From NCBI GenBank assembly GCA_025964675.1, contig JAOPYI010000139.1, positions 1 through 64,000 of the forward strand: DNA of 64,000 nt, read 5' to 3'. The notes under the pieces are model-generated. The model was not told the origin of the DNA. It was given only the letters and a program-made list of their open reading frames with translations, and made no database searches. Positions 47,643-63,905 of this stretch are shown one piece after another (positions within the stretch are counted from its first letter, which is position 1; each line of letters starts with the position of its first letter). The stretch comes from Sphaerisporangium sp. GTDB lineage: Bacteria > Actinomycetota > Actinomycetes > Streptosporangiales > Streptosporangiaceae. The translations under genes and the position numbers were made by a program.

Positions 47643-48815
47643 TCACCGGAACACCCCTGTGTGACCGAGCGAGTGAAGTCCGGGCTGCGGATACACGGCG
47701 AGGCCGTGCGGCCCCGCGTCGACCGGGATCTTCCGTACGAGGTGGCCGTTGCGGGTGTCGAACACGTAGACCACGCTGTTGTAGCGCCCGGCGAGCCACA
47801 GGAGGCGGCCGTCGGCGGACACGCCGCCCATGTCTGGCGAACCGCCACCGGGGATGTGCCAGGTCTCGACCGGTCTGCGCTTGGCGAACGACACGACCGA
47901 CACCGACCCCGCGCCCCGGTTGGACACGTACAGGTCCTTGGAGTCCCGGCTGACGTAGAGCCCGTGGGCGCCGGCGCCGGTCTTGACGAAGCCCTCCACC
48001 TTGAAGCGCTCGGCGTCGACCAGCCAGATCCCGCCCTTGGCCATGTCGGCGACGTAGAAGGTCCTGCCGTCCGGAGACAGCTTCACGTCCTGCGGCATGC
48101 TGTGGTGCGCCGGCAGGTTGACCACCTCGCTGACCTTCCGCCGGGCCAGGTCGATGACCACCAGGCGACCCGAGAACTCGCAGCTGGCCAGGAAGGTCGA
48201 ACCGTCCACGGTGAAGTCCGCGTGGTTGACGCCAAGACACGGCATGTCCATGGAGGCGCGCAGCTTGAACGTCTGGGGATCACGGAAGTCCAGCCGGTTG
48301 AGGCGTTCCGCCATCACCAGAGCCGTGGTGCCGTCCGGTGTGAAGTACAGGTTGTAGGGGTCCTCGACGGGGATGGCCTTGCCCGGCTTCCCGGTCGCCG
48401 GGTCGATCGGCGTGAGCGTGTTGCCGTCGTTGTTGTTGACCCACAGCGTCTTCAGGTCCCAGGAGGGGACCACGTGCTGCGGTCGCCTTCCGACCTTGAA
48501 GTGCCGGATGACCTTATAGGTCCTGGGATCGATGACGCTGACGGTGCCGCTCTCGCTGTTCGGCACGTAGACCAGCGACGGAAAGCCCGCCACGGCGGGG
48601 CTGAGCAGGCCGGGCCGGTCGTGGGCGTAAACGTCGACGACCGGTGCCTGCTTGACCCCGCCATGCGGCGCCGGCGCGGCGCCGGCCGGAGAGGTCGGAG
48701 GGATGGGCGGGATGGCGGCGTCCCGGGACGCCGCGCCGCCACCGGAGCATGCGGACACGGTGAGGACGATCGCGGCGACGAGCAGCCGGCCGGCCCGCTG
48801 AGTGGTCCTTGTCAT
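47643..48815 (-). CDS. YncE-like beta-propeller lipoprotein
   Basis: 390 residues. A lipoprotein signal peptide (RLLVAAIVLTVSAC) is followed by a disordered Pro/Ala linker. The rest is a seven-bladed propeller of YVTN/YncE type: LVYVPNSESGTVSVIDPRTY, PQHVVPSWDLKTLWVNNNDG, QDVKLSPDGRTFYVADMAKG, AHGLYVSRDSKDLYVSNRGA. Such surface lipoproteins bind or scaffold but have no catalytic residues. It starts 4 bp after the upstream lipoprotein gene and is probably co-transcribed with it. Confidence 0.9.
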   Translation of the reverse strand: MTRTTQRAGRLLVAAIVLTVSACSGGGAASRDAAIPPIPPTSPAGAAPAPHGGVKQAPVVDVYAHDRPGLLSPAVAGFPSLVYVPNSESGTVSVIDPRTYKVIRHFKVGRRPQHVVPSWDLKTLWVNNNDGNTLTPIDPATGKPGKAIPVEDPYNLYFTPDGTTALVMAERLNRLDFRDPQTFKLRASMDMPCLGVNHADFTVDGSTFLASCEFSGRLVVIDLARRKVSEVVNLPAHHSMPQDVKLSPDGRTFYVADMAKGGIWLVDAERFKVEGFVKTGAGAHGLYVSRDSKDLYVSNRGAGSVSVVSFAKRRPVETWHIPGGGSPDMGGVSADGRLLWLAGRYNSVVYVFDTRNGHLVRKIPVDAGPHGLAVYPQPGLHSLGHTGVFR

Positions 48816-52578: not shown

Positions 52579-54666
52579 TCAGTGCGTCGTGAGTTCCGCG
52601 AGGCAGGACTCCAGCCTTTCCCTGGCGTCCTGGTCCTCGGCCGCGGCCAGCACCTTCTCGTAGTCCGCTGCGGCTTCGGCGAGGCGGCCGGAGTCCTGGT
52701 AGGCGACGGCCCTGTTGAACCGGATCGCGGGTGCGTCGCTCAGCTCGACCGCACGGTCCAGATCGTGGACGGCGTCGGCGAGGTCGCCGGCCTCGTAGGC
52801 CAGCTCTCCTCGCAGTGCCCACGCCTCGGCGAGCCGCCCGTCGCGTGCCACCGCCGCCGAGAGGGCCTCGCGGGCGGCGGCCGACTCGCCACGCTCGGCG
52901 AGCAGCCTGCCCTTGAGGCACAGCAGGTGGGCGTTCCCGGGAGCGTGCTCCAGCCCCGCCGTCACATCCACCCAGGCCGCGTCCGCGTCGCCCAGCTCAC
53001 ACAGGAGCCCGGCCCTGTTCACGCGCGCGTCGACGTGGGCGGGGTCCAGCTCGATCGTGTAACCGAAGTCCGCCAGCGCTCCTTCCACGTCACCGAGCTC
53101 CAGCCGGGCGTCACCGAGGTTGTAGTACGCCTCGGGGAACGGCGGCGAGAGGCTCAGCGCGCGCTGGTACGCCGCGACGGCCTCCTCGTCGCGTCCCAGC
53201 CGCCGCAGGATGTTGCCCACGTTGAAGTGATGCTCAGGGAAGTCGGGGTCGATCTCCACGACTGCGGTGTAGTCCTGAAGCGATTCCTCCAGCCGGCCCA
53301 TCATGCCGAGGACCTGCGCCCGGTTGTAGCGCAGCACCGCACGGTGCAGGGCGTGCTCACCCGGCTCCAGCTCCCTGTCCAGCCGGGCCATGCCCGCCTC
53401 CAGCAGCCGCAGCGCCTCCTCCGCGCTCTTCTGCCGCACCTCGATCAGCGCCAGCCCGTTGTTGCCGAAGACCGAGTGGAAGGCGCGTTTCTTCGGGTCC
53501 TCCGCGAGCGAGGCGATGGCGATGGACATGTTCATCCAGGCCCTGGCGCGCTGGTAGTCCCGGCGCGCTTCCGGGTAGTGCCGGGCGTACAGCATCGCGG
53601 TGCCGTAGGCCAGGTCCATGTGGACGACGGGGTCGGCGGTGGCGGCCCGCGCCTCGTCGTAGATCGCCTCCGCCTCGTCGGCACGGCTGAGGGACGCCAG
53701 CGTGGTGCTCGTCGCGTTGGTGAAGTCCCACCACAGCTCCTTCTGGGCCGACCGGTCCACGATCGCCCTGCCACGCAGCCCCAGCTCCGCCGCCGCCTGG
53801 TAGAGGCCGACGCCGCGGCATTGGTCCATCGCCGCTTTCAGCGCGGCGAGGCCGGCGCCCGAGGGGTCGCCGCCATGCTGGGCGTGGTAGGGCACCGCCC
53901 CCAGCAGGAGCGAGGCCTCCCCCCTGCCCGCGAGCGCCGCCGCCCGCTCGTCGTGCAGCCGTGCGCGCTCCTCGCGCGAGAGCCGCTCGTAGGCGTCGAG
54001 CACCCGGGGGTCGTCGCTCGTCCCGTCGCTGTCGACGTACGCCCGGCCCTCGGGGGCGGGCCCGTCCGGCGGCTCCGTCGCCGGGCCGTCGACGCGCCGG
54101 GCGTGGCTCTCCAGCAACCGCGCCAGCGAGATCGCCGGCTCGCCTGGCGGATCGGCGACCGGATCAAGGCCCGTGCAGGCCACGACGGTCAGCGGGCCGA
54201 GGTCGCTTCGGCGGAGAAGGACGGCGACGAGCTCCTGGTCGGTCGGATCGGCCTCGTGGAGGTTCTCCACGACGAGCGTCCGAGGCACGCCGCCGAGCGC
54301 CCGCAGGTAGTCGCGCAGGAACTCGGCCAGGCCGTTGGCGATGTTCAGCGTGTGCAGGCGCGAGTAGAAACGGGTGCGCTCCCCCTTGCCTGCGGCCCAC
54401 TCCAGCGAGGTCCACGCGGGCGGCACGGCGGCGGCCAGCTCGGGGGCGCAGGTCACGATCTCGATGTTGTGCCTGGGCCCGAGCTCCGGGCAGCGCTCCA
54501 GGGCGTCGGCGGCGATCGAGCGCAGCAGCGTGCCGGTGGCGGTGTACGGCCCGCGCAGGCGCCGGTGCGCGTCCAGCGCCGCCAGGCTCGGCGGCAGGTC
54601 GAGCCGGCTCCTGACGAGGTCGCGGTCACGGCGCCGGGCGGCCCGGATCCAGTAGTGGTCACCCAT
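52579..54666 (-). CDS. TPR protein with degenerate ATPase-like N-terminus (peptide operon, third gene)
   Basis: 695 residues from ATG 54666. The first 190 or so residues look like a P-loop ATPase that has lost its Walker A: LRGPYTATGTLLRSIAADAL stands where GxxGxGKT would be, while TLVVENLHEADPTDQELVA keeps the Walker B-like strand. The rest is a long TPR array, clearest in DPDFPEHHFNVGNILRRLGR, FPEAYYNLGDARLELGDVEG and DARVNRAGLLCELGDADAAW. The gene starts 11 bp after the PqqD-M50 gene and belongs to its operon. It probably scaffolds protein-protein contacts; the exact job is unknown. Confidence 0.8.
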   Translation of the reverse strand: MGDHYWIRAARRRDRDLVRSRLDLPPSLAALDAHRRLRGPYTATGTLLRSIAADALERCPELGPRHNIEIVTCAPELAAAVPPAWTSLEWAAGKGERTRFYSRLHTLNIANGLAEFLRDYLRALGGVPRTLVVENLHEADPTDQELVAVLLRRSDLGPLTVVACTGLDPVADPPGEPAISLARLLESHARRVDGPATEPPDGPAPEGRAYVDSDGTSDDPRVLDAYERLSREERARLHDERAAALAGRGEASLLLGAVPYHAQHGGDPSGAGLAALKAAMDQCRGVGLYQAAAELGLRGRAIVDRSAQKELWWDFTNATSTTLASLSRADEAEAIYDEARAATADPVVHMDLAYGTAMLYARHYPEARRDYQRARAWMNMSIAIASLAEDPKKRAFHSVFGNNGLALIEVRQKSAEEALRLLEAGMARLDRELEPGEHALHRAVLRYNRAQVLGMMGRLEESLQDYTAVVEIDPDFPEHHFNVGNILRRLGRDEEAVAAYQRALSLSPPFPEAYYNLGDARLELGDVEGALADFGYTIELDPAHVDARVNRAGLLCELGDADAAWVDVTAGLEHAPGNAHLLCLKGRLLAERGESAAAREALSAAVARDGRLAEAWALRGELAYEAGDLADAVHDLDRAVELSDAPAIRFNRAVAYQDSGRLAEAAADYEKVLAAAEDQDARERLESCLAELTTH

Positions 54667-54677
54667 GGTGCGTCCCT

Positions 54678-55922
54678 TCAGGCGATGACGTGGTGAAGCC
54701 GCCTCTCGCGGCGGCGGTACCGGTCCCGGACCGCCAGCCATCCGAGGACGATGAGCTGCAGCAGGATGAAGCCGGTGAAGACGGCCGAGTCCAGCAGCTG
54801 GGCCCAGGTGGCCCCGGTGTCGGTGAAGCGGCCGAGGACTCCGATGACCATCTGGTACACGATCGGGGCCACCGCGAGGACGAACGTCGTGAGGCTCAGC
54901 GTGTAGCCGCCGACGATCAGCCAGGAGTACCACCGCGCGACCCGCCGGTCGACGGGATGCCAGTCCGACTCGTCGATGATCCGGTCGCGGCGGCCGAGCA
55001 GCCGGTTGACCCGGTTGCGGAGCAGGCGCTTGGCGGTGGTGTGGAGGTCGACGCAGCCGAGTGCGGTGGAGACGAGCACGTAGAGATCGGTTCGCAGGTA
55101 GAACGAGAACTGCCAGAGGATACGGAGCAGGATGGCGAAGGCGAACGCCAGGCAGAATTTGCCCCACGGGGAGAACGCGCCCCCCGCCACCCTGCTGAGG
55201 TCCGCCGCGATCGTCAGCACGGCCATGACCACCACGTCCGCCAGCATCCCGGCGACGATCGGCAGGTACCTCTTGCGCCGCGGCACGGCCACCAGGCCGT
55301 CCAGGGACGTCTCCAGCACGATGAAGTAGAGCCGGCGCCCGATGCTCAGCCGGGAGCGCAGGCCGAGGCGCCGCCCGGCGAGGGCGTGGAAGCTTTCGTG
55401 CAGCAGCAGCTGGGGGATGGCCACGACGAACAGCGTCGCCTGGACGACCGTGTAGTACTCGGTGAAGAAGACGTTGCGGTAGCTCGGCACCAGGTCCCGG
55501 TGCAGCGCCATGGCGATCAGCGCCCACCCGATCAGCGCCGCGTAGAGGATCCAGGCGGGGGTGGAGAACACGGCCGCGCCGAGGCGCCTCCAGCGAACGG
55601 GGGCGGCGGTCGCCGTCCCCGGATCGTCCGGCGAGCGGATGAAGCCCAGCTCGTCCAGGGCCGCGATCACGTCGCCGATGTCGACGCTCTCGTGGTATTC
55701 GGCGGCGTACCAGGCGACCGCGTCACGCGGGGAGAGTCCCTCCTCCAGCCTGCGCACCAGTTCGGCGCCGTCAGGGGGGAAGATGCCGTAGGAGTCGGTG
55801 TCCGGCCTGCCCACCGTCACGTCCTCGCCGTCGGCCAGGTAGACCAGCGGGTGGAGCGGGAGCGGCCGGTCGGAGTCGTACCGGATCGCCGGACCGTCGT
55901 CCACGGCTTCCACGTCAGTCAA
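54678..55922 (-). CDS. PqqD-like (RiPP recognition) domain fused to M50-type HExxH membrane peptidase
   Basis: 414 residues from TTG 55922, with GGAGGGG upstream; a GTG three codons later is an alternative. Residues of about 20-97 look like a PqqD-type RiPP recognition element: LHPLVYLADGEDVTV, then YGIFPPDGAELVRRLEEGLS and IGDVIAALDELGFI. Six membrane segments follow. The second carries the zinc motif in QLLLHESFHALAGRRLG (HExxH at about 175-179), and the likely third ligand is Asp in YLRTDLYVL (about 279), as in site-2-protease-like peptide maturases. This would cut or modify a leader-bearing peptide at the membrane. The 26-codon gene just upstream is the obvious substrate. Confidence 0.8.
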   Translation of the reverse strand: MTDVEAVDDGPAIRYDSDRPLPLHPLVYLADGEDVTVGRPDTDSYGIFPPDGAELVRRLEEGLSPRDAVAWYAAEYHESVDIGDVIAALDELGFIRSPDDPGTATAAPVRWRRLGAAVFSTPAWILYAALIGWALIAMALHRDLVPSYRNVFFTEYYTVVQATLFVVAIPQLLLHESFHALAGRRLGLRSRLSIGRRLYFIVLETSLDGLVAVPRRKRYLPIVAGMLADVVVMAVLTIAADLSRVAGGAFSPWGKFCLAFAFAILLRILWQFSFYLRTDLYVLVSTALGCVDLHTTAKRLLRNRVNRLLGRRDRIIDESDWHPVDRRVARWYSWLIVGGYTLSLTTFVLAVAPIVYQMVIGVLGRFTDTGATWAQLLDSAVFTGFILLQLIVLGWLAVRDRYRRRERRLHHVIA

Positions 55923-56013
55923 CGAACACCCCTCCGTACGGCTCGGTCGCGGGGGACGAAGCGCCGAGTACGAGCGTGTGCCCCGCACCCGGCGCGTTCG
56001 CCGGGAACCGGTA

Positions 56014-56094
56014 CTAGTTGACGGCCTTGTAGATGGAGCACGCCGCGGCGGTCAGGCGGACCGGACCGACCTTACGAATCTTGATCTTCTTCAT
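56014..56094 (-). CDS. 26-residue candidate RiPP precursor peptide
   Basis: A short gene from ATG 56094 to TAG 56014-56016. Its ribosome binding site is GGAGGAGG (56101-56108), six bases upstream, one of the strongest in the window. The peptide opens with a basic segment MKKIKIRK, then VGPVRL, and ends TAAACSIYKAVN, with a single Cys, one Thr, one Ser and one Tyr near the C-terminus. It lies 91 bp upstream of the PqqD-M50 gene on the same strand. The gene is too short for standard gene calling. Precursor function is inferred from position, size and the RRE-containing neighbour. The processing site is unknown. Confidence 0.72.
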   Translation of the reverse strand: MKKIKIRKVGPVRLTAAACSIYKAVN

Positions 56095-56131
56095 CTCGTA
56101 CCTCCTCCCCGCTTTTCGAAGGCTTGCGATC

Positions 56132-56176
56132 ACAATGACCGCCGGCGCTGGACCGCTGTCGGCACCGTGCTGGACC
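56132..56176 (-). promoter_or_regulatory. Putative SARP-type operator and promoter of the precursor gene
   Basis: On the minus strand GGTCCAGC occurs at 56169-56176 and again at 56147-56154, exactly 22 bp apart. Nine bases beyond the second copy comes CATTGT (56132-56137), a possible -10 box; an alternative hexamer TCATTG sits at eight bases. SARP regulators bind direct repeats spaced 11 or 22 bp whose last copy lies about 8 bp upstream of the -10. Transcription would start about 30 bases before the precursor start codon. The other strand carries the SARP gene itself. Confidence 0.55.
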
Positions 56177-56340
56177 AGCAATGCCGGGAGGAGGAGGCGC
56201 GTCCAGCCGATCGACGGCGAGCCTCCAGCGAGGCCGGGAATGGCCGCGATAGGACACTTGGCAGCCTCGCATTACAGCTAGTCAAAACATATGATTCTCC
56301 AAATTTGCGGCATAACCCACGCGCTCTCTCCAGGAGACAC

Positions 56341-58725
56341 ATGGCAGAGTTACGGTTTCACCTGCTAGGTCCGTTACGGGTATGGCGAGGAGAAACCGAG
56401 GTCGAGCTCAGCTCGTACAAGCAACGCGCCGTGCTGGCCGTGTTGCTTCTCCGAGCGGGGGCACCCGTCCGCCGGCAGGAGATCATCGACGCGGTCTGGG
56501 GTGACGACGCGCCGGAGTCCGCCGTCAACCTCGTGCAGACCTACGTCGGACGGCTGCGGCGCCGCGTCGACCCCGGACATGTCGCCCGCTCCGGCTCGTC
56601 CTGGCTCGCCGGGCTCGGCTCCGCCTACGCCGTCCGGCTAGAAGACTGCGACGCGGACCTGCTCCGTTTCCGGGCGAAGGCCGCCGAGGCCCGGCAGACG
56701 GCCTCCCCCAAGGAATCCCTGGACCTGCTGCTCCAGGCGCTGCGGCTGTGGCAGGGACCCTGCCTGTCCGACCTCGACCACATCCTGAAGGGCCACCCCT
56801 GGGTACGCGCGATCGACCAAGAGCGCATCAACGTCCTTCTGGAATCCGCCAAGATCGCGCTCCAGCTGGGCCTGGCGGCCGAGGTCATACCGCAGCTGCG
56901 CTCCGTCGCCTCGGCCGAGCCTCTTGACGAGGCGGTGCACTCCTGGCTGGTGCTCGCCCTCGCCACGTCCGGCGCCCAAGCCGAGGCGCTCGCGGAGTAC
57001 GAGTCGACGCGCGCCAGGCTGGCCGACGAACTCGGCATCGACCCAGGCCCCCAGCTGCGAGCGGCCCACCTCCAGGTGCTGAGGCAGGAGACGATGCTCC
57101 CCCCCTCGTACGAGGCGCCGACTCAGGCCGGACCGCTGAGACCGTCGCTCCTGCCCGCCGACATCGCCGACTTCACCGGGCACCAGAAGCTGGTCGATCA
57201 CCTGTCCGGCCTGCTCGCCGCCCACAAGCCCGGGCCCGTCATGGTGACGCTCGTCACGGGACAGGCCGGCGTCGGCAAGACCGCCGTGGCCGTCCACGTG
57301 GCGCACCTGATGAGCGAGGCGTTCCCCGACGGCCAGCTTTACGCCGACCTGCTCGGCACCGACGCCCAGCCGACCGACCCCGCCCGGGTGCTCACCCGGT
57401 TCCTGCGTGCGCTCGGCATCCACGGCTCGGCGATCCCCGAGGACCTCGAGGAACGCGTGGACCTGTACCGCAGCCAGCTCGCGGGGCGCCGGATCCTCGT
57501 CGTGCTGGACAACGCCGGCGGGCAGGCCCAGGTCAGACCGCTGCTGCCGGGCTCACCGACCTGCTCGGTGATCGTGACTAGCCGTTCACGGCTGTCAGGC
57601 TGGCCGGGGGCCCGCGCCGTCGACCTCGGCGTGATGGACCCGGCGGACGCGGAAGGACTGCTGACGGCGATCCTCGGCGACGAGCGCGTCGCGGCCGAAC
57701 CCGAGGCCGCCGCCGAGGTCGTGCGGCTGTGCGGCGGGCTGCCGCTGGCGATCCGGGCCGCGGCGACCCGGCTCAGCGCCCGCCCGCACCTGACGCTCGC
57801 CCGCTTCACGGAGCGGTTCGCCCGGGGAGGGCTGGACGAGCTCACGCTCGGAGACCTGGACGTGCGGGGAAGTCTCGCGGTCGGCTACCACAGGATCGAT
57901 GAGGCGGCCCAGAAGGCCTTCCGCCTCCTCGGCCTGCTGGACGTCCCGTCGTTCGCCGCCTGGATGGCCGCCACGATGCTGGAGACCCCAGTGGAGTCGG
58001 CGGAGGAGCTCCTCGACGTGCTCACCGACGCACGCCTCCTGGAGGTCATGGGGACGGACGCCACGGGCCACACGCGCTACCGGTTCCACCAGCTGGTCCG
58101 CCTCTACGCCCGTGAGCGGGCCGCGGTGGAGGAGAGCCACACCACCGTCCGTGTGGTGATCACGCGCGCTCTCGCCACCCTGCTCGCCCTGGCGCAGGAG
58201 GCCGACGACCACCTGCCGTCCTGCCTGCACGCCCCGATCCGCGGCAGGGCTCCGCGATGGCCCTCCCCGGCGCCGATCCACCAGGACGTGCTCGCGGCCC
58301 CCCTTGCCTGGTTCGAGAGCGAGCGGGCCTGCCTGGTCGCCTCCGTTCCCCAGGCGGCCGCCATAGGACATGAGGAGCTGGCGTGGGAGCTGGCCGGCTC
58401 ACTCCTGAACGCCGCCATCCTGCGGGGGTACTGGAACGAGCTGGAACAGACCCATCGTGCCGCCCTCCTGGCCTGCCGGCATACGGGGAACAGGCTCGGC
58501 GAGGCCGTGATGCTCCGCGGCCTGGCCGAGCTGGACCACAACCTCGGGCGCCACGACGAGTGCCTCGAAGGCCTGACGACGGCTCGGGCTATCTTCGCCG
58601 GGCTCCAGGCCATCAAGGGCGAGGCCGACGCCCGCGACCGGCTGCGAGCCATCCACATGGGCCTCGGCCGCTTGGAGGACGCGCTCGCCTCCGCCTCACC
58701 GGAGCCGGCGACGGCGGCGGGCTGA
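56341..58725 (+). CDS. AfsR/SARP-family regulator with BTAD and NB-ARC domains
   Basis: 794 residues from ATG 56341, with AGGAG upstream. Residues 1-95 are an OmpR-like winged helix (LRFHLLGPLRVWRGETEVEL, VNLVQTYVGRLRRRVDP). Residues of about 100-245 form the bacterial transcriptional activation domain. An NB-ARC ATPase follows with Walker A in VTGQAGVGKTAVAVHVAH near 306-314, Walker B-like RILVVLDNAG, and LCGGLPLAIRAAATRL as the GLPL motif. A helical C-terminal part resembles TPRs. SARPs activate secondary-metabolite operons. It is divergent from the peptide operon, its probable target. Confidence 0.92.
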   Translation: MAELRFHLLGPLRVWRGETEVELSSYKQRAVLAVLLLRAGAPVRRQEIIDAVWGDDAPESAVNLVQTYVGRLRRRVDPGHVARSGSSWLAGLGSAYAVRLEDCDADLLRFRAKAAEARQTASPKESLDLLLQALRLWQGPCLSDLDHILKGHPWVRAIDQERINVLLESAKIALQLGLAAEVIPQLRSVASAEPLDEAVHSWLVLALATSGAQAEALAEYESTRARLADELGIDPGPQLRAAHLQVLRQETMLPPSYEAPTQAGPLRPSLLPADIADFTGHQKLVDHLSGLLAAHKPGPVMVTLVTGQAGVGKTAVAVHVAHLMSEAFPDGQLYADLLGTDAQPTDPARVLTRFLRALGIHGSAIPEDLEERVDLYRSQLAGRRILVVLDNAGGQAQVRPLLPGSPTCSVIVTSRSRLSGWPGARAVDLGVMDPADAEGLLTAILGDERVAAEPEAAAEVVRLCGGLPLAIRAAATRLSARPHLTLARFTERFARGGLDELTLGDLDVRGSLAVGYHRIDEAAQKAFRLLGLLDVPSFAAWMAATMLETPVESAEELLDVLTDARLLEVMGTDATGHTRYRFHQLVRLYARERAAVEESHTTVRVVITRALATLLALAQEADDHLPSCLHAPIRGRAPRWPSPAPIHQDVLAAPLAWFESERACLVASVPQAAAIGHEELAWELAGSLLNAAILRGYWNELEQTHRAALLACRHTGNRLGEAVMLRGLAELDHNLGRHDECLEGLTTARAIFAGLQAIKGEADARDRLRAIHMGLGRLEDALASASPEPATAAG

Positions 58726-60064: not shown

Positions 60065-60127
60065 TTGACGTGACCGTAGCGCGTATGTAACCTTTGGCCA
60101 ACGCTACGCAAAAATCTTGCAAAGCAA
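60065..60127 (+). promoter_or_regulatory. SigA-type promoter and palindromes upstream of the glucanase gene
   Basis: TTGACG (60065-60070), 17 bases, then TAACCT (60088-60093) make a good housekeeping promoter. CGTAGCG at 60075-60081 and its complement CGCTACG at 60102-60108 flank the -10 box. TTGCAAAGCAA at 60117-60127 is a short palindrome just downstream. These could be operators of a sugar-responsive repressor; none is identified. The leader to the start codon is about 160 bases. The rest of the gap 59762-60263 shows no gene I can support. Confidence 0.5.
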
Positions 60128-60263
60128 TGTTCATTTTCTCGCCGTTCGTCGCAACTTCAGGAATGCACTGCGTCCGTGCACCTGCCCCCCATCCGTGTGC
60201 GGTGAAGGCGCATGCCTTCAAGCCACGACCCTGTCGTGCATGACGAGAGATAGAAGAACGCGA

Positions 60264-63200
60264 ATGAGAATGCCGCACGGACCGTTACGGCTGGTGGCGA
60301 CCATGGTCGCCGCCAGCCTGCTCGTCGTGGGGTCGGTCGTCCCGGCCTCCGCCGCGGGCGGACCCAACCTGTCGCCAGGAAAGGCGACCCAAGCCAGCAG
60401 CTCCGCGGCCGGATACGCGGTGTCGGCCGTCAACGACGGCGACCAGGCCACCTACTGGGAGAGCGCCAACAACAGCTTCCCGCAGTGGGCGCGGATCGAC
60501 CTCGGCACCGCCACGAGCGTCGACCAGATCGTCCTGAAGGTTCCCGCGCCGACCGCCTGGCAGACCCGCACCCAGACGCTTTCGGTCCAGGGCGGCGCCG
60601 ACGGCTCCAGCTACAGCACGGTCGTGGCCTCGGCGAACTACACGTTCAACCCGGCGACCGGCAACACGGTCACGATCAACTTCGGCGCCGCGACCCACAG
60701 GTACTGGCGCGTGAACGTCACCGCCAACACCGGCTGGCCCGCCGCGCAGATCTCCGAGTTCGAGCTGTACGGGCCCAGCGCCGGCGGCGACAACCAGGCA
60801 CCGACCGCGCCGGCGAACCTCGCCTACACCCAGCCGTCGGGCACCCAGATCCAGCTGACCTGGACCGCCTCGACCGACAACGTGGGCGTCACCGGCTACG
60901 ACATCTACGCCAACAACCAGCTGCGGTCGAGCGTCGGCAACGTCACCACCTACACCGACACCCAGCCGGCCACGGCGACCGTGACCTACTACGTGAAGGC
61001 CAAGGACGCGGCGGGCAACCAGTCGCCCAACAGCAACTCCGTGACCCGCAACGGCACCGGCGACCCCGGCTCGAACCTGGCGATCGGCAAGGAGATCGCC
61101 GAGTCCGGCCACGTGCACACGTTCGTCGCCGCCAATGCGAACGACAACAACCTGGCCACCTACTGGGAGGCCAACTCCGGCGCGTTCCCGAACACGCTGA
61201 CCGTCAAGCTCGGCGCCAACGCCAGCGTCAGCTCGGTCGTGGTGAAGCTGAACCCCGACTCCTCGTGGGGCACTCGTACGCAGAACATCCAGGTCCTGGG
61301 CCGTGAGCAGAGCGCCACGACCTACCAGAACCTGGTGTCGGCGGCCACCTACACCTTCAACCCGGCCTCCGGCGGCAACTCGGTGAAGATCGACTTCTCC
61401 GCGACCGTCGCCGACGTCCAGCTGAAGTTCGCCAGCAACAGCGGCGCACCCGGCGGACAGGTCGCCGAGTTCCAGGTCATCGGCGTCCCGGCGCCGAATC
61501 CAGACCTCACGGTCACGAACCTCTCCTGGACGCCGGCCTCCCCGACCGAGGCCAACGCGATCACGCTGTCGGCCACGGTCAGGAACTCGGGCACCGCCGC
61601 CTCCGGAGCGGACAGCGTCAACCTGTACCTCGGCGGCACGCTGGTCGGCACCCCCGCGATCCCCGCCCTGCCCGTCAACGGCACCGCCACGGTGACCCAC
61701 AACATCGGCACCCGCGGCGAGGGGAGCTACACGGTCAGCGCCAGGGTGGACGCGGACAACACGGTCTTCGAGCAGAACGAGGACAACAACACCTTGACCG
61801 CGACGTCACCGCTGGTGGTCGCGCAGGCTCCCGGCCCTGACCTGCAGGTCCTCAGCATCAGCTCCAACCCGCCGAATCCGGCCGTCGGAGCGGCGGTCAC
61901 GTTCAACGTGGCGGTGAAGAACCGCGGGACCACCGCGGTGGCCTCTACCACGGTCACTCGTGTGGAGGTGGGCGGCACCACGCTCAACACCAACACCCCG
62001 TCGATCGCCGCCGGTGCGACGGCCAACGTGGCCATCAGCGGCAGCTGGACCGCTACCAGCGGCGGTGCCACCATCACCGCCACCGCCGATGCGACCAACG
62101 TCGTCACCGAGACCAACGAGACCAACAACGCGTTCTCGCAGGCGATCGTGGTCGGGCGCGGGGCGGCGGTTCCGTGGGCCGAGTACGAGGCCGAAGCCGC
62201 CCGCTACCAGGGCACCCTGCTTGAGACCGACGCGCTGCGCACCTTCGGGCACACCAACTTCGCCACCGAGTCCTCTGGCAGGAAGTCGGTGCGGCTGACC
62301 AGCACGGGGCAGTTCGTCGAGTTCACCTCGACGAATCCCTCCAACTCGATCGTGGTGCGCAACTCCATCCCCGATGCGCCGAACGGTGGCGGCATCGATG
62401 CCACCATCAGCTTGTACATCAACGACACCTTCGCCCAGAAGCTGACCCTCTCGTCGCGCCACAGCTGGCTGTATGGGAACACTGATGGCCCCGAAGCACT
62501 GACGAACACCCCCCAAGCCGACGCCCGGCGGCTGTTCGACGAGTCGCATGCGCTGCTGTCGTCGACTTACCCGGCAGGCACCAAGTTCCGGTTGCAGCGC
62601 GATGCGACCGATACGGCCTCCTTCTACATCGTCGACTTGATCGACCTGGAGCAGGTGGCACCACCGGCGAGCCAGCCCGCCGGTTGCACCTCGATCACGA
62701 CCTACGGTGCCGTGCCCAACGACGGGATCGACGACACGGCAGCCATCCAGCGGGCGGTGACGGACGACCAGAACGGTGTCATCAGCTGTGTGTGGATCCC
62801 AGCTGGGCAGTGGCGGCAGGAGCAGAAGATCCTCACCGATGATCCGTTGAATCGGGGTCAGTACAACCAGGTGGGCATCAGCAACGTCACGATCCGTGGA
62901 GCGGGGATGTGGCACTCTCAGCTGTACACCGTGACCGAGCCGCAACTGGTGGTGGGTGGCATCAATCACCCGCACGAGGGCAACTTCGGCTTCGACATCG
63001 ACGGCAACGTCCAGATCTCCGATATCGCCATCTTCGGCTCGGGCCGTATTCGCGGTGGTGACGGCAACGCCGAAGGCGGGGTGGGCTTGAACGGGCGGTT
63101 CGGCCAGAACACCAAGATCACCAATGTGTGGATCGAGCACGCCAACGTGGGCGTCTGGGTCGGTCGTGACTACGACAACATCCCAGCCCTGTGGGGGCCT

Positions 63201-63905
63201 GCCGATGGGCTGCAGTTCAGCGGCATGCGCATCCGCGACACCTACGCCGACGGCATCAACTTCACCAACGGCACGCGTAACTCGCGGGTGTTCAACTCCT
63301 CGTTCCGCACCACCGGCGACGACTCCCTGGCGGTCTGGGCCAGCCGGTACGTGAAGGACACAGCGGTGGACATGGCGCACGACAACCACTTCGTCAACAA
63401 CACCATCCAGCTTCCCTGGCGAGCGAACGGAATCGCGATCTACGGCGGCTACGGCAACACGATCGAGAACAACCTGATCTACGACACCATGAACTACCCG
63501 GCCATCATGCTGGCGACCGACCACGACCCCCTGCCCTTCTCGGGGCAGACCCTGATAGCCAACAACGGGATCTACCGTGGCGGTGGCGTCTTCTGGGGCG
63601 AGGCTCAGAAGTTCGGAGCCATTACGATCTTCCCGGCGAGTCAAGACATCACTGGTGTCACAATCCGGGACACCGATATCTATGACTCGACCTACGACGG
63701 CATCCAGTTCAAGAACGGTGGCGGCAACATGCCCGGCGTCGTGATCACCAATGTGCGGATCGACAAGTCGAACAACGGTGCCGGCATTCTGGCTATGGGC
63801 GGCGCCCGCGGTAGCGCGACGCTGACAAACGTCACCATAACCAACTCGGCCACAGGAAACATCGTGAAAGAACCAGGATCGAGCTTCGTGATCACGGGCG
63901 GTTAG
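60264..63905 (+). CDS. Secreted multidomain GH87-like alpha-1,3-glucanase
   Basis: 1213 residues from ATG 60264. The signal peptide LRLVATMVAASLLVVGSVVP ends at ASA-AGG. In order: an F5/8 (discoidin) domain at about 30-172, a fibronectin type III domain at 176-266, a second discoidin domain at 269-408, CARDB repeats at 412-515 and 524-628, then a beta-sandwich lead-in (632-800) and a parallel beta-helix catalytic domain from about 805. The catalytic part contains GCTSITTYGAVPNDGIDDTA and RIRDTYADGINFTNG with RTTGDDSLAVWAS, the acidic motifs expected of GH87 mycodextranase/alpha-1,3-glucanase. The target would be fungal-wall alpha-glucan. Third-base GC bias drops in the last third, suggesting a mosaic gene. 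Confidence 0.82.
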   Translation: MRMPHGPLRLVATMVAASLLVVGSVVPASAAGGPNLSPGKATQASSSAAGYAVSAVNDGDQATYWESANNSFPQWARIDLGTATSVDQIVLKVPAPTAWQTRTQTLSVQGGADGSSYSTVVASANYTFNPATGNTVTINFGAATHRYWRVNVTANTGWPAAQISEFELYGPSAGGDNQAPTAPANLAYTQPSGTQIQLTWTASTDNVGVTGYDIYANNQLRSSVGNVTTYTDTQPATATVTYYVKAKDAAGNQSPNSNSVTRNGTGDPGSNLAIGKEIAESGHVHTFVAANANDNNLATYWEANSGAFPNTLTVKLGANASVSSVVVKLNPDSSWGTRTQNIQVLGREQSATTYQNLVSAATYTFNPASGGNSVKIDFSATVADVQLKFASNSGAPGGQVAEFQVIGVPAPNPDLTVTNLSWTPASPTEANAITLSATVRNSGTAASGADSVNLYLGGTLVGTPAIPALPVNGTATVTHNIGTRGEGSYTVSARVDADNTVFEQNEDNNTLTATSPLVVAQAPGPDLQVLSISSNPPNPAVGAAVTFNVAVKNRGTTAVASTTVTRVEVGGTTLNTNTPSIAAGATANVAISGSWTATSGGATITATADATNVVTETNETNNAFSQAIVVGRGAAVPWAEYEAEAARYQGTLLETDALRTFGHTNFATESSGRKSVRLTSTGQFVEFTSTNPSNSIVVRNSIPDAPNGGGIDATISLYINDTFAQKLTLSSRHSWLYGNTDGPEALTNTPQADARRLFDESHALLSSTYPAGTKFRLQRDATDTASFYIVDLIDLEQVAPPASQPAGCTSITTYGAVPNDGIDDTAAIQRAVTDDQNGVISCVWIPAGQWRQEQKILTDDPLNRGQYNQVGISNVTIRGAGMWHSQLYTVTEPQLVVGGINHPHEGNFGFDIDGNVQISDIAIFGSGRIRGGDGNAEGGVGLNGRFGQNTKITNVWIEHANVGVWVGRDYDNIPALWGPADGLQFSGMRIRDTYADGINFTNGTRNSRVFNSSFRTTGDDSLAVWASRYVKDTAVDMAHDNHFVNNTIQLPWRANGIAIYGGYGNTIENNLIYDTMNYPAIMLATDHDPLPFSGQTLIANNGIYRGGGVFWGEAQKFGAITIFPASQDITGVTIRDTDIYDSTYDGIQFKNGGGNMPGVVITNVRIDKSNNGAGILAMGGARGSATLTNVTITNSATGNIVKEPGSSFVITGG

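What the first reader, a model, noticed from the sequence alone, without database searches (positions are those of the whole stretch)
52579..58725. Compact, unnamed RiPP-like system: 26-residue peptide, PqqD-M50 protease, TPR protein, SARP regulator
A 26-codon gene with a GGAGGAGG ribosome binding site heads an operon. The next gene fuses a PqqD-like RiPP recognition element to an HExxH membrane protease, and the third is a TPR protein with a degenerate ATPase-like domain. A divergent AfsR/SARP regulator sits beside them. No radical SAM enzyme, lanthionine synthetase, YcaO or transporter is present. Either the mature product is a simple trimmed peptide, perhaps a signal, or unlinked enzymes act on it. 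I know of no described class with this set.
Basis: partly seen in the sequence, partly recalled or inferred. Interest (0 to 1): 0.9.

Follow-up and report, generated by a model that had tools for sequence, protein, structure and literature searches.

The report
Tiny peptide with membrane protease partner
A soil actinobacterium carries a gene for a 26-residue peptide next to a membrane protease that looks built to recognise its front half and a repeat protein that partners it; the same set recurs in relatives with varying tail sequences, which suggests an undescribed kind of small processed peptide.

Summary
The 26-aa ORF is a real gene: in 341 same-family genomes a search with the protease and a search with the peptide profile met at the same 26 loci. 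The protease's N-terminus matches lasso-peptide RREs by profile and fold, both modestly. HExxH and a candidate third ligand (Asp279) are invariant in 25 sequences.

(1) The TPR protein is the more widely shared partner: relatives without the protease nearly all sit beside a tiny peptide with the same leader, stop and start codons overlapping in one class. (2) All 24 distinct protease-linked peptides have Cys and Tyr in the tail, and 17 of 29 loci have a flavoenzyme gene next; the window lacks it. (3) More distant RRE-proteases, many behind an E1/ThiF gene, have their own tiny precursors, some with four-residue tails.

Best reading: a RiPP-type system in which the RRE-protease binds the KKIxIRKxGxVRLT leader and releases a short Cys/Tyr peptide; the TPR protein binds precursor or product. 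The RRE-protease fusion is known from daptides; this set was not found in my searches. Product and chemistry are unknown.

The parts
56014..56094 (-). 26-aa precursor peptide gene MKKIKIRKVGPVRLTAAACSIYKAVN with stop
   Evidence: protease search and peptide search meet at the same loci
56050..56091 (-). leader, residues 2-15 (KKIKIRKVGPVRLT), conserved
   Evidence: mean entropy 0.6 bit against 1.51 for the first seven tail positions
56017..56049 (-). tail (putative core), residues 16-26 (AAACSIYKAVN), variable; Cys and Tyr kept
   Evidence: Cys and Tyr in the tails of 24 of 24 distinct peptides (23 distinct tails)
56101..56108 (-). ribosome binding site GGAGGAGG
   Evidence: sequence
55957..56000 (-). 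hairpin between precursor and protease genes (putative attenuator)
   Evidence: stem equalled in at most 2 of 100 shuffles in 19 of 22 intergenic stretches, the window's (1 of 100) among them; but whole-region dinucleotide z of the window only -1.32
54678..55922 (-). RRE-M50 membrane protease, TTG start
55638..55865 (-). PqqD-like RRE domain, about residues 20-95 of the protease
   Evidence: TbiB1 E 0.0097, TfuB1 E 0.05; three strands then three helices; Foldseek ranks 1-6 all lasso RREs, E 0.018-0.22
55386..55400 (-). HESFH (HExxH) zinc motif, residues 175-179; candidate third ligand Asp279 at 55086-55088
   Evidence: H175, E176, H179 and D279 invariant in 25 sequences; the role of D279 is inferred
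52579..54666 (-). TPR protein with N-terminal degenerate STAND/AAA-like domain
54541..54567 (-). HRRLRGPYT motif (residues 34-42) where a P-loop would be expected
   Evidence: R36, G39, P40, Y41 invariant in 27; between a strand and a helix, pLDDT under 50 there
56341..58725 (+). divergent AfsR/SARP-type regulator (Trans_reg_C, BTAD, NB-ARC)
   Evidence: divergent homologue in 15 of 29 loci, the window's included

Best explanation
A RiPP-type peptide maturation system. Shown: a conserved 26-aa precursor gene, an intergenic hairpin in most relatives tested, an RRE-M50 protease gene and a TPR gene, with a flavoenzyme gene following in 17 of 29 loci but not in the window. Inferred: the precursor is made in excess (strong ribosome binding site, hairpin before the protease). 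Its leader KKIxIRKxGxVRLT binds as a strand to the protease's RRE. The membrane protease cuts near the end of the leader (after ...RLT or within the following AA) and releases a short tail that carries Cys and Tyr. The TPR protein binds precursor or product, either as a scaffold or as an intracellular receptor, since it stays paired with leader-bearing peptides where no protease lies beside it. In relatives a flavin enzyme probably acts on the tail, perhaps on Cys or Tyr. The SARP protein regulates the operon in the closest branch. In the window, without the flavoenzyme, the product may be a trimmed or disulfide-only peptide.
For: Protease and peptide searches meet at the same 26 loci in 341 genomes. 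Leader conserved, tail variable. RRE by profile and fold. HExxH plus an invariant Asp279. Cys and Tyr in the tails of 24 of 24 distinct protease-linked peptides; in the protease-less peptides I saw no tail with Tyr and only two with Cys (L163; L185). Flavoenzyme in 17 of 29 loci. TPR gene in 29 of 29. Hairpins of unlike sequence between branches. More distant RRE-M50 genes also have small precursors with a leader of the same shape (21 of 25 loci, 0 of 25 on the opposite strand). Precedent: the daptide RRE-dependent intramembrane peptidase removes a leader (PMC10036551, passages).
Against: No biochemical data. The window's M50 matches neither Pfam M50 nor PqqD on its own, and the RRE E-values are modest (0.0097 and 0.05; none of the Foldseek matches reached 0.001). 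No obvious exporter. TPR genes with the same leader peptide occur in at least seven genomes where this protease family was not found at E 1e-5, so the leader is not only a signal for this RRE. The window lacks the fourth gene, and its genome holds only a 32% partial relative of the old yellow enzyme. The window's intergenic stretch as a whole does not fold unusually well (z -1.32, 22 of 200 shuffles as good). The leader scoring table and the motif were drawn up from some of the same loci they were tested on. At E 0.5 the peptide profile matched 272 of 341 genomes, so its weak matches are no evidence by themselves.
Confidence: 0.6

Rival explanations
1. Peptide-receptor signalling: the peptide, trimmed or whole, is a ligand of the TPR protein, like a Phr/Rap-type pair but with a degenerate STAND domain; the protease is an added or lost processing step.
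For: Near-universal pairing of TPR gene and leader peptide in the loci examined; peptide stop overlaps the TPR start in 15 of 15 IHKG loci (14 GTGA, 1 TTGA); TPR and peptide without this protease family in at least seven genomes; STAND domains act as switches (recalled).
Against: No DNA-binding domain found in the TPR protein and no export signal seen by eye. Tails of the protease-linked peptides vary while the leader is fixed, which is not what one conserved ligand would show, although the IHKG tails are nearly fixed.
Confidence: 0.22
2. Pearlin-like scaffold: the peptide is a reusable carrier and the M50 protease cuts a modified residue from its C-terminus.
For: M50 enzymes TglG and TmoG do this in pearlins (PMC10885120, passages); very short tails in the E1/ThiF group.
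Against: C-terminal residues vary (N in 11 of 24, otherwise S, A, G, E, Q, K, I, V, F; list); no PEARL (LanB-like) gene among the ORFs scanned beside the operon.
Confidence: 0.08
3. Regulatory upstream ORF or arrest peptide: the short ORF only controls translation of the gene behind it.
For: The ORF lies directly upstream of the protease or of the TPR gene, and overlaps the TPR start in the IHKG class.
Against: Constraint is strongest in the N-terminal 14 residues and is on the amino acids; the same leader stands before different genes; arrest peptides are usually fixed near the C-terminus (recalled).
Confidence: 0.07

Closest known systems
Daptide leader peptidase MpaP/DapP (NCBIfam NF041824 daptide_HExxH)
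   Same: RRE N-terminally fused to an intramembrane M50/S2P protease encoded beside a short precursor (PMC10036551, passages); 3 of 25 family members match NF041824, best E 1.4e-8.
   Different: The window's protein does not match it. No oxidative decarboxylase, aminotransferase or methyltransferase among the ORFs scanned beside it; the precursor lacks the ELExMEAP leader and the C-terminal Thr; a TPR gene instead.
YydH/LiaK and EpeP epipeptide metalloprotease (NF058609)
   Same: M50 peptidase that matures a ribosomal peptide; one member hits NF058609 at E 2.4e-4.
   Different: No radical SAM gene among the ORFs scanned beside it.
Lasso peptide RRE (TbiB1, TfuB1)
   Same: Nearest solved structures of the RRE domain by profile and fold; leaders seem to share a hydrophobic-x-x-V-G-x-hydrophobic pattern and a Thr near the cut (lasso leader recalled).
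   Different: No B2 peptidase or cyclase gene among the ORFs scanned; no YxxP in the leader (YxxP as the lasso motif: PMC12710340, passages).
Pearlin M50 proteases TglG/TmoG
   Same: M50 protease working on a small peptide.
   Different: They act on the C-terminus of a scaffold (PMC10885120, passages); no PEARL enzyme gene among the ORFs scanned here.
TPR proteins of FxSxx-COOH and HaaA cyclophane systems (NF040586, NF041717)
   Same: Large TPR proteins of RiPP systems.
   Different: In one search these models match the SARP protein's NB-ARC/TPR part and are not among the 25 families listed for the operon's TPR protein; that they belong to radical SAM systems is recalled.

Membership tests
RRE (PqqD-like) domain | winged-helix fold of three strands then three helices, with profile similarity to known RREs | tested here: met
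   (moderate E-values; model mean pLDDT 64 from one sequence)
RRE (PqqD-like) domain | binds the leader of the precursor | not testable with these tools
   no complex could be modelled
M50 / site-2 protease | HExxH and a third Asp ligand in membrane helices | tested here: met
   invariant H175, E176, H179, D279; profile hits RseP weakly (E 0.026); Pfam M50 matches 12 of 25 members at E up to 1, best E 0.00011, below the cut-off where bits were shown, and not the window's protein; membrane helices were not computed
RiPP precursor | conserved leader with variable core beside the processing gene | tested here: met
RiPP | post-translational modification or leader removal shown | not testable with these tools
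   needs mass spectrometry
Daptide | oxidative decarboxylase, aminotransferase and methyltransferase genes; C-terminal Thr; ELExMEAP leader | tested here: not met
   (operon and ten flanking ORFs); definition from PMC10036551 (passages)
Lasso peptide | B2 peptidase and asparagine-synthetase-like cyclase genes, YxxP leader | tested here: not met
Epipeptide | radical SAM epimerase gene | tested here: not met
   for the operon and ten flanking ORFs
Phr/Rap-type (RRNPP) signalling | TPR receptor with an output domain or target, exported propeptide with signal sequence | tested here: inconclusive
   TPR plus a weak AAA_16 remnant, no HTH; no signal peptide seen by eye, none computed

The most novel reading that the evidence does not exclude
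A new RiPP class or superclass in actinobacteria. One leader type (roughly KIxIRKxxxVRLT) is shared by three system types: precursor, RRE-M50 and TPR protein, often with a flavoenzyme, making Cys/Tyr products; precursor and TPR protein alone, translationally coupled and nearly fixed in tail sequence in one class, perhaps a conserved signal; and precursor with RRE-M50, mostly behind an E1/ThiF enzyme, with tails as short as four residues.
Probability: 0.45. Interest if true: 0.87.

Novelty: new variant of a known kind. Interest (0 to 1): 0.72.

Why it matters
If right, it adds an undescribed peptide family in one actinobacterial family and a few others: the protease family was found in 23 of 100 relatives sampled and the TPR gene in 23 of 60. 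Its precursors are short (18-44 aa) and may be missed by gene callers. It gives a TPR protein a candidate role in RiPP maturation or peptide sensing, and offers a set of natural leader/RRE pairs with a directly testable cut.

Tried and rejected
Pfam and NCBIfam on the window's protease gave no relevant family; the family-wide profile was needed. Daptide, lasso, epipeptide, pearlin and Phr/Rap memberships were considered and not accepted (see membership test). Searches for printed peptide fragments and for the combination of parts gave no description of this set. A Foldseek search with the TPR model listed TPR-repeat proteins and says nothing on the N-terminal domain. Whether the protease was inserted into an older peptide-TPR pair or lost from one could not be decided: the unrooted tree separates M50-linked from M50-less TPR proteins, but the root is unknown, and some rows have long branches. 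The C-terminal Asn idea (microcin C-like) was dropped, since only 11 of 24 tails end in Asn. Searches were misread frames, repeated correctly.

Full report
What is there. On the minus strand, 56094 down to 52579, lie three genes: a 26-codon ORF, an RRE-M50 gene and a TPR gene. A SARP gene runs the other way from 56341. The peptide is MKKIKIRKVGPVRLTAAACSIYKAVN. The protease starts at TTG; a TTG in the same place heads it in six further close relatives, and in one more (L034) a GTG stands there with a TTG two codons before it.

Is it real. A search of 100 relatives found the protease family in 23 genomes at E 1e-5. A search of 341 family genomes found it in 110 at E 1e-20, and 26 loci at 43% identity or more, apart from a fragment in G248. 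A profile of 23 peptides, searched in the same 341 genomes, gave 27 matches below 1e-11, which lie at exactly those 26 loci (G105 has two tandem peptides), then a gap to 1e-6; with the limit at E 0.5, 272 of 341 genomes had some match, so the weak end is noise mixed with the second set told below. The profile was built from peptides found beside the protease, so the second search is independent in placement, not in make-up. With G073 and G434 and G572, outside the family, there are 29 protease-linked loci. In 12 close peptide genes (10 distinct) 14 of 26 third codon positions vary, against 7 first and 5 second.

The protease. In 25 aligned members H175, E176, H179 and D279 are invariant. On its own the window protein matches no Pfam family; across the 25 members Pfam M50 appears weakly in 12 and PqqD in 3. 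The family profile against solved structures gives, for the N-terminus, the lasso RREs TbiB1 (E 0.0097) and TfuB1 (E 0.05), and for the HExxH part RseP (E 0.026). A single-sequence model of residues 1-101 has low to moderate confidence (mean pLDDT 64) and shows three strands followed by three helices. Its first six Foldseek matches are all TbiB1 or TfuB1 (E 0.018-0.22); none of the matches reaches 0.001; further down, at E above 1, come other RiPP enzymes (ThcOx, a sactipeptide enzyme, McbBCD) among unrelated proteins.

The peptide. Over 24 distinct protease-linked peptides the 14-residue leader has a mean entropy of 0.6 bit against 1.51 for the first seven tail positions. There are 19 distinct leaders and 23 distinct tails. 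All 24 hold at least one Cys and one Tyr in the tail, at varying spacing. The relatives are not independent, so this is a pattern and not a probability. Between precursor and protease a hairpin is found in most relatives: in 19 of 22 stretches tested the longest stem was equalled in at most 2 of 100 mononucleotide shuffles, and the stems differ in sequence between branches (near-copies L032, L085, L087, L089, L090, L096 and L043 left out, L229 and L230 not tested, L092 counted twice for its two peptides). The misses are L084, L036 and the longer L092 stretch. With dinucleotide shuffles of the whole stretch, z was -1.32 for the window, -2.17 for L033 and -4.1 to -5.0 for L094, L041 and L039.

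Neighbours. Of 29 protease-linked loci, 29 have the TPR gene behind the protease, 15 the divergent SARP, 10 an old-yellow-enzyme gene and 7 a flavin-reductase-like gene behind the TPR gene (L096 and L097; Pfam was run on L033, L039, L040, L094, L096 and L097; L042 and L043 rest on tblastn). The window has neither; protocatechuate dioxygenase genes lie there, and the own genome holds only a partial 32% relative of the old yellow enzyme.

The TPR partner. The peptide profile also found a second set of tiny ORFs with the same leader but other tails, such as ...GTSSVIHKG and ...GAATPKHAA. Of 20 such places fetched, 18 have a relative of the TPR gene behind them with no protease between; in L150 and L163 I found none on that strand. 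A search of 60 relatives with the TPR protein hit 23 genomes. Of 30 loci fetched from it (four more TPR places were not), 26 had a leader-bearing ORF scoring 22-51 within 1.5 kb upstream, against a best score of -6.8 on the opposite strands. The misses are L219 and L227, cut short but with the peptide known from L041 and L037; L221, where none was found in a longer stretch either (L231); and L228, with a weak one in the longer L232 (score 17.2). Of 16 longer stretches, in part the same loci, 13 had a peptide, one a weak one and two (L231, L235) none. The scoring table was trained on peptides from some of these loci. In 15 of 15 loci with the HKG tail the peptide's stop overlaps the TPR start that I assigned (GTGA in 14, TTGA in L158). 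Seven genomes (G010, G014, G019, G025, G032, G042, G053) have such a pair but no relative of the protease at E 1e-5. The own genome has one such pair too (G000:C122, L161). Tails of the protease-less peptides seen have no Tyr, and Cys only in L163 and L185. A tree of 60 TPR proteins puts the two protease-less classes (28 rows, with two unlabelled rows) on one side of a well supported branch (99/99) and the 29 protease-linked rows, with one unlabelled row, on the other; the root is unknown, and the program warns of long branches.

The TPR protein. Its first 170 residues keep a Walker-B-like stretch (AAA_16, E 0.0051), but the place of a P-loop holds HRRLRGPYT, with R36, G39, P40 and Y41 invariant in 27 sequences. 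A three-sequence model shows alternating strands and helices there, with low confidence at that motif.

The wider family. The more distant proteases (26-35% identity) have tiny ORFs with a leader of the same shape ending in T or S: 21 of 25 loci within 2.7 kb upstream, 0 of 25 on the opposite strand. The motif was written after seeing six of them. Tails run from four residues (QFMT, VKDG) to about twelve. Of the 20 such loci clustered, 14 have a gene of one ThiF-like cluster; Pfam was run on one member only (L045, ThiF, E 9e-47). L047, L052, L053 and L056 show peptide and protease with no gene of that cluster.

How it probably works. The RRE of the protease takes the leader as a strand, the membrane protease cuts it, and a short tail is released. 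This rests on the daptide precedent (PMC10036551, passages) and on the pattern of conservation; no step is shown. What the TPR protein does is open: scaffold or receptor.

Comparison and novelty. The RRE-protease fusion is known. I did not find in print the combination with a TPR protein, the Cys/Tyr tails, the coupled peptide-TPR pairs or the ThiF group; the searches were made, in an open-access library. I saw passages of PMC10036551, PMC12338566, PMC12710340, PMC7470986, PMC13381572 and PMC10885120; other papers were seen only in listings.

Host. One same-genus genome (G004) has a contig of the same length and with the same locus as Sphaerisporangium rufum record NZ_BOOU01000034.1, so a Sphaerisporangium-like host is inferred.

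Noticed in passing
L045, L046, L048-L050, L054, L055, L057-L063 (genes before the M50 gene); L100, L103, L101 look alike: ThiF-like plus RRE-M50 systems, most with a tiny precursor found (not L058, L062), e.g. MKIEVRKVEAVKATQFMT (18 aa; the QFMT tail in L045, L046, L100, L103); no Pfam family for the two genes behind the protease in L055.
   Followed up: partly
L161 (G000:C122), L151-L168, L199-L213: A peptide-TPR pair without protease: one class often lies behind an NsdA-like TPR gene and a GNAT gene and before purU, another behind ftsY (NsdA, purU and ftsY named from the sequences by eye).
   Followed up: partly
window 47646-48815 (-): YncE-like beta-propeller gene; homologues lie a few kb behind the operon in L033, L035 and L036.
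   Followed up: no
L092:9013-9215: Two tandem precursor genes with nearly the same tails (SAAQPLYFCYE, SAAQPLYVCYQ) before one protease.
   Followed up: no
L044:4162-4260: Precursor with an unusually Cys-rich tail AMACYCYGCCCCGGRAAI in a small genome outside the family.
   Followed up: no
window 60117-63902 (+): Large alpha-1,3-glucanase-like gene with CARDB and F5/8 domains beside the SARP gene.
   Followed up: no
L150, L163: Leader-bearing peptides in G228 and G208 with no TPR gene of this family found right behind them.
   Followed up: no
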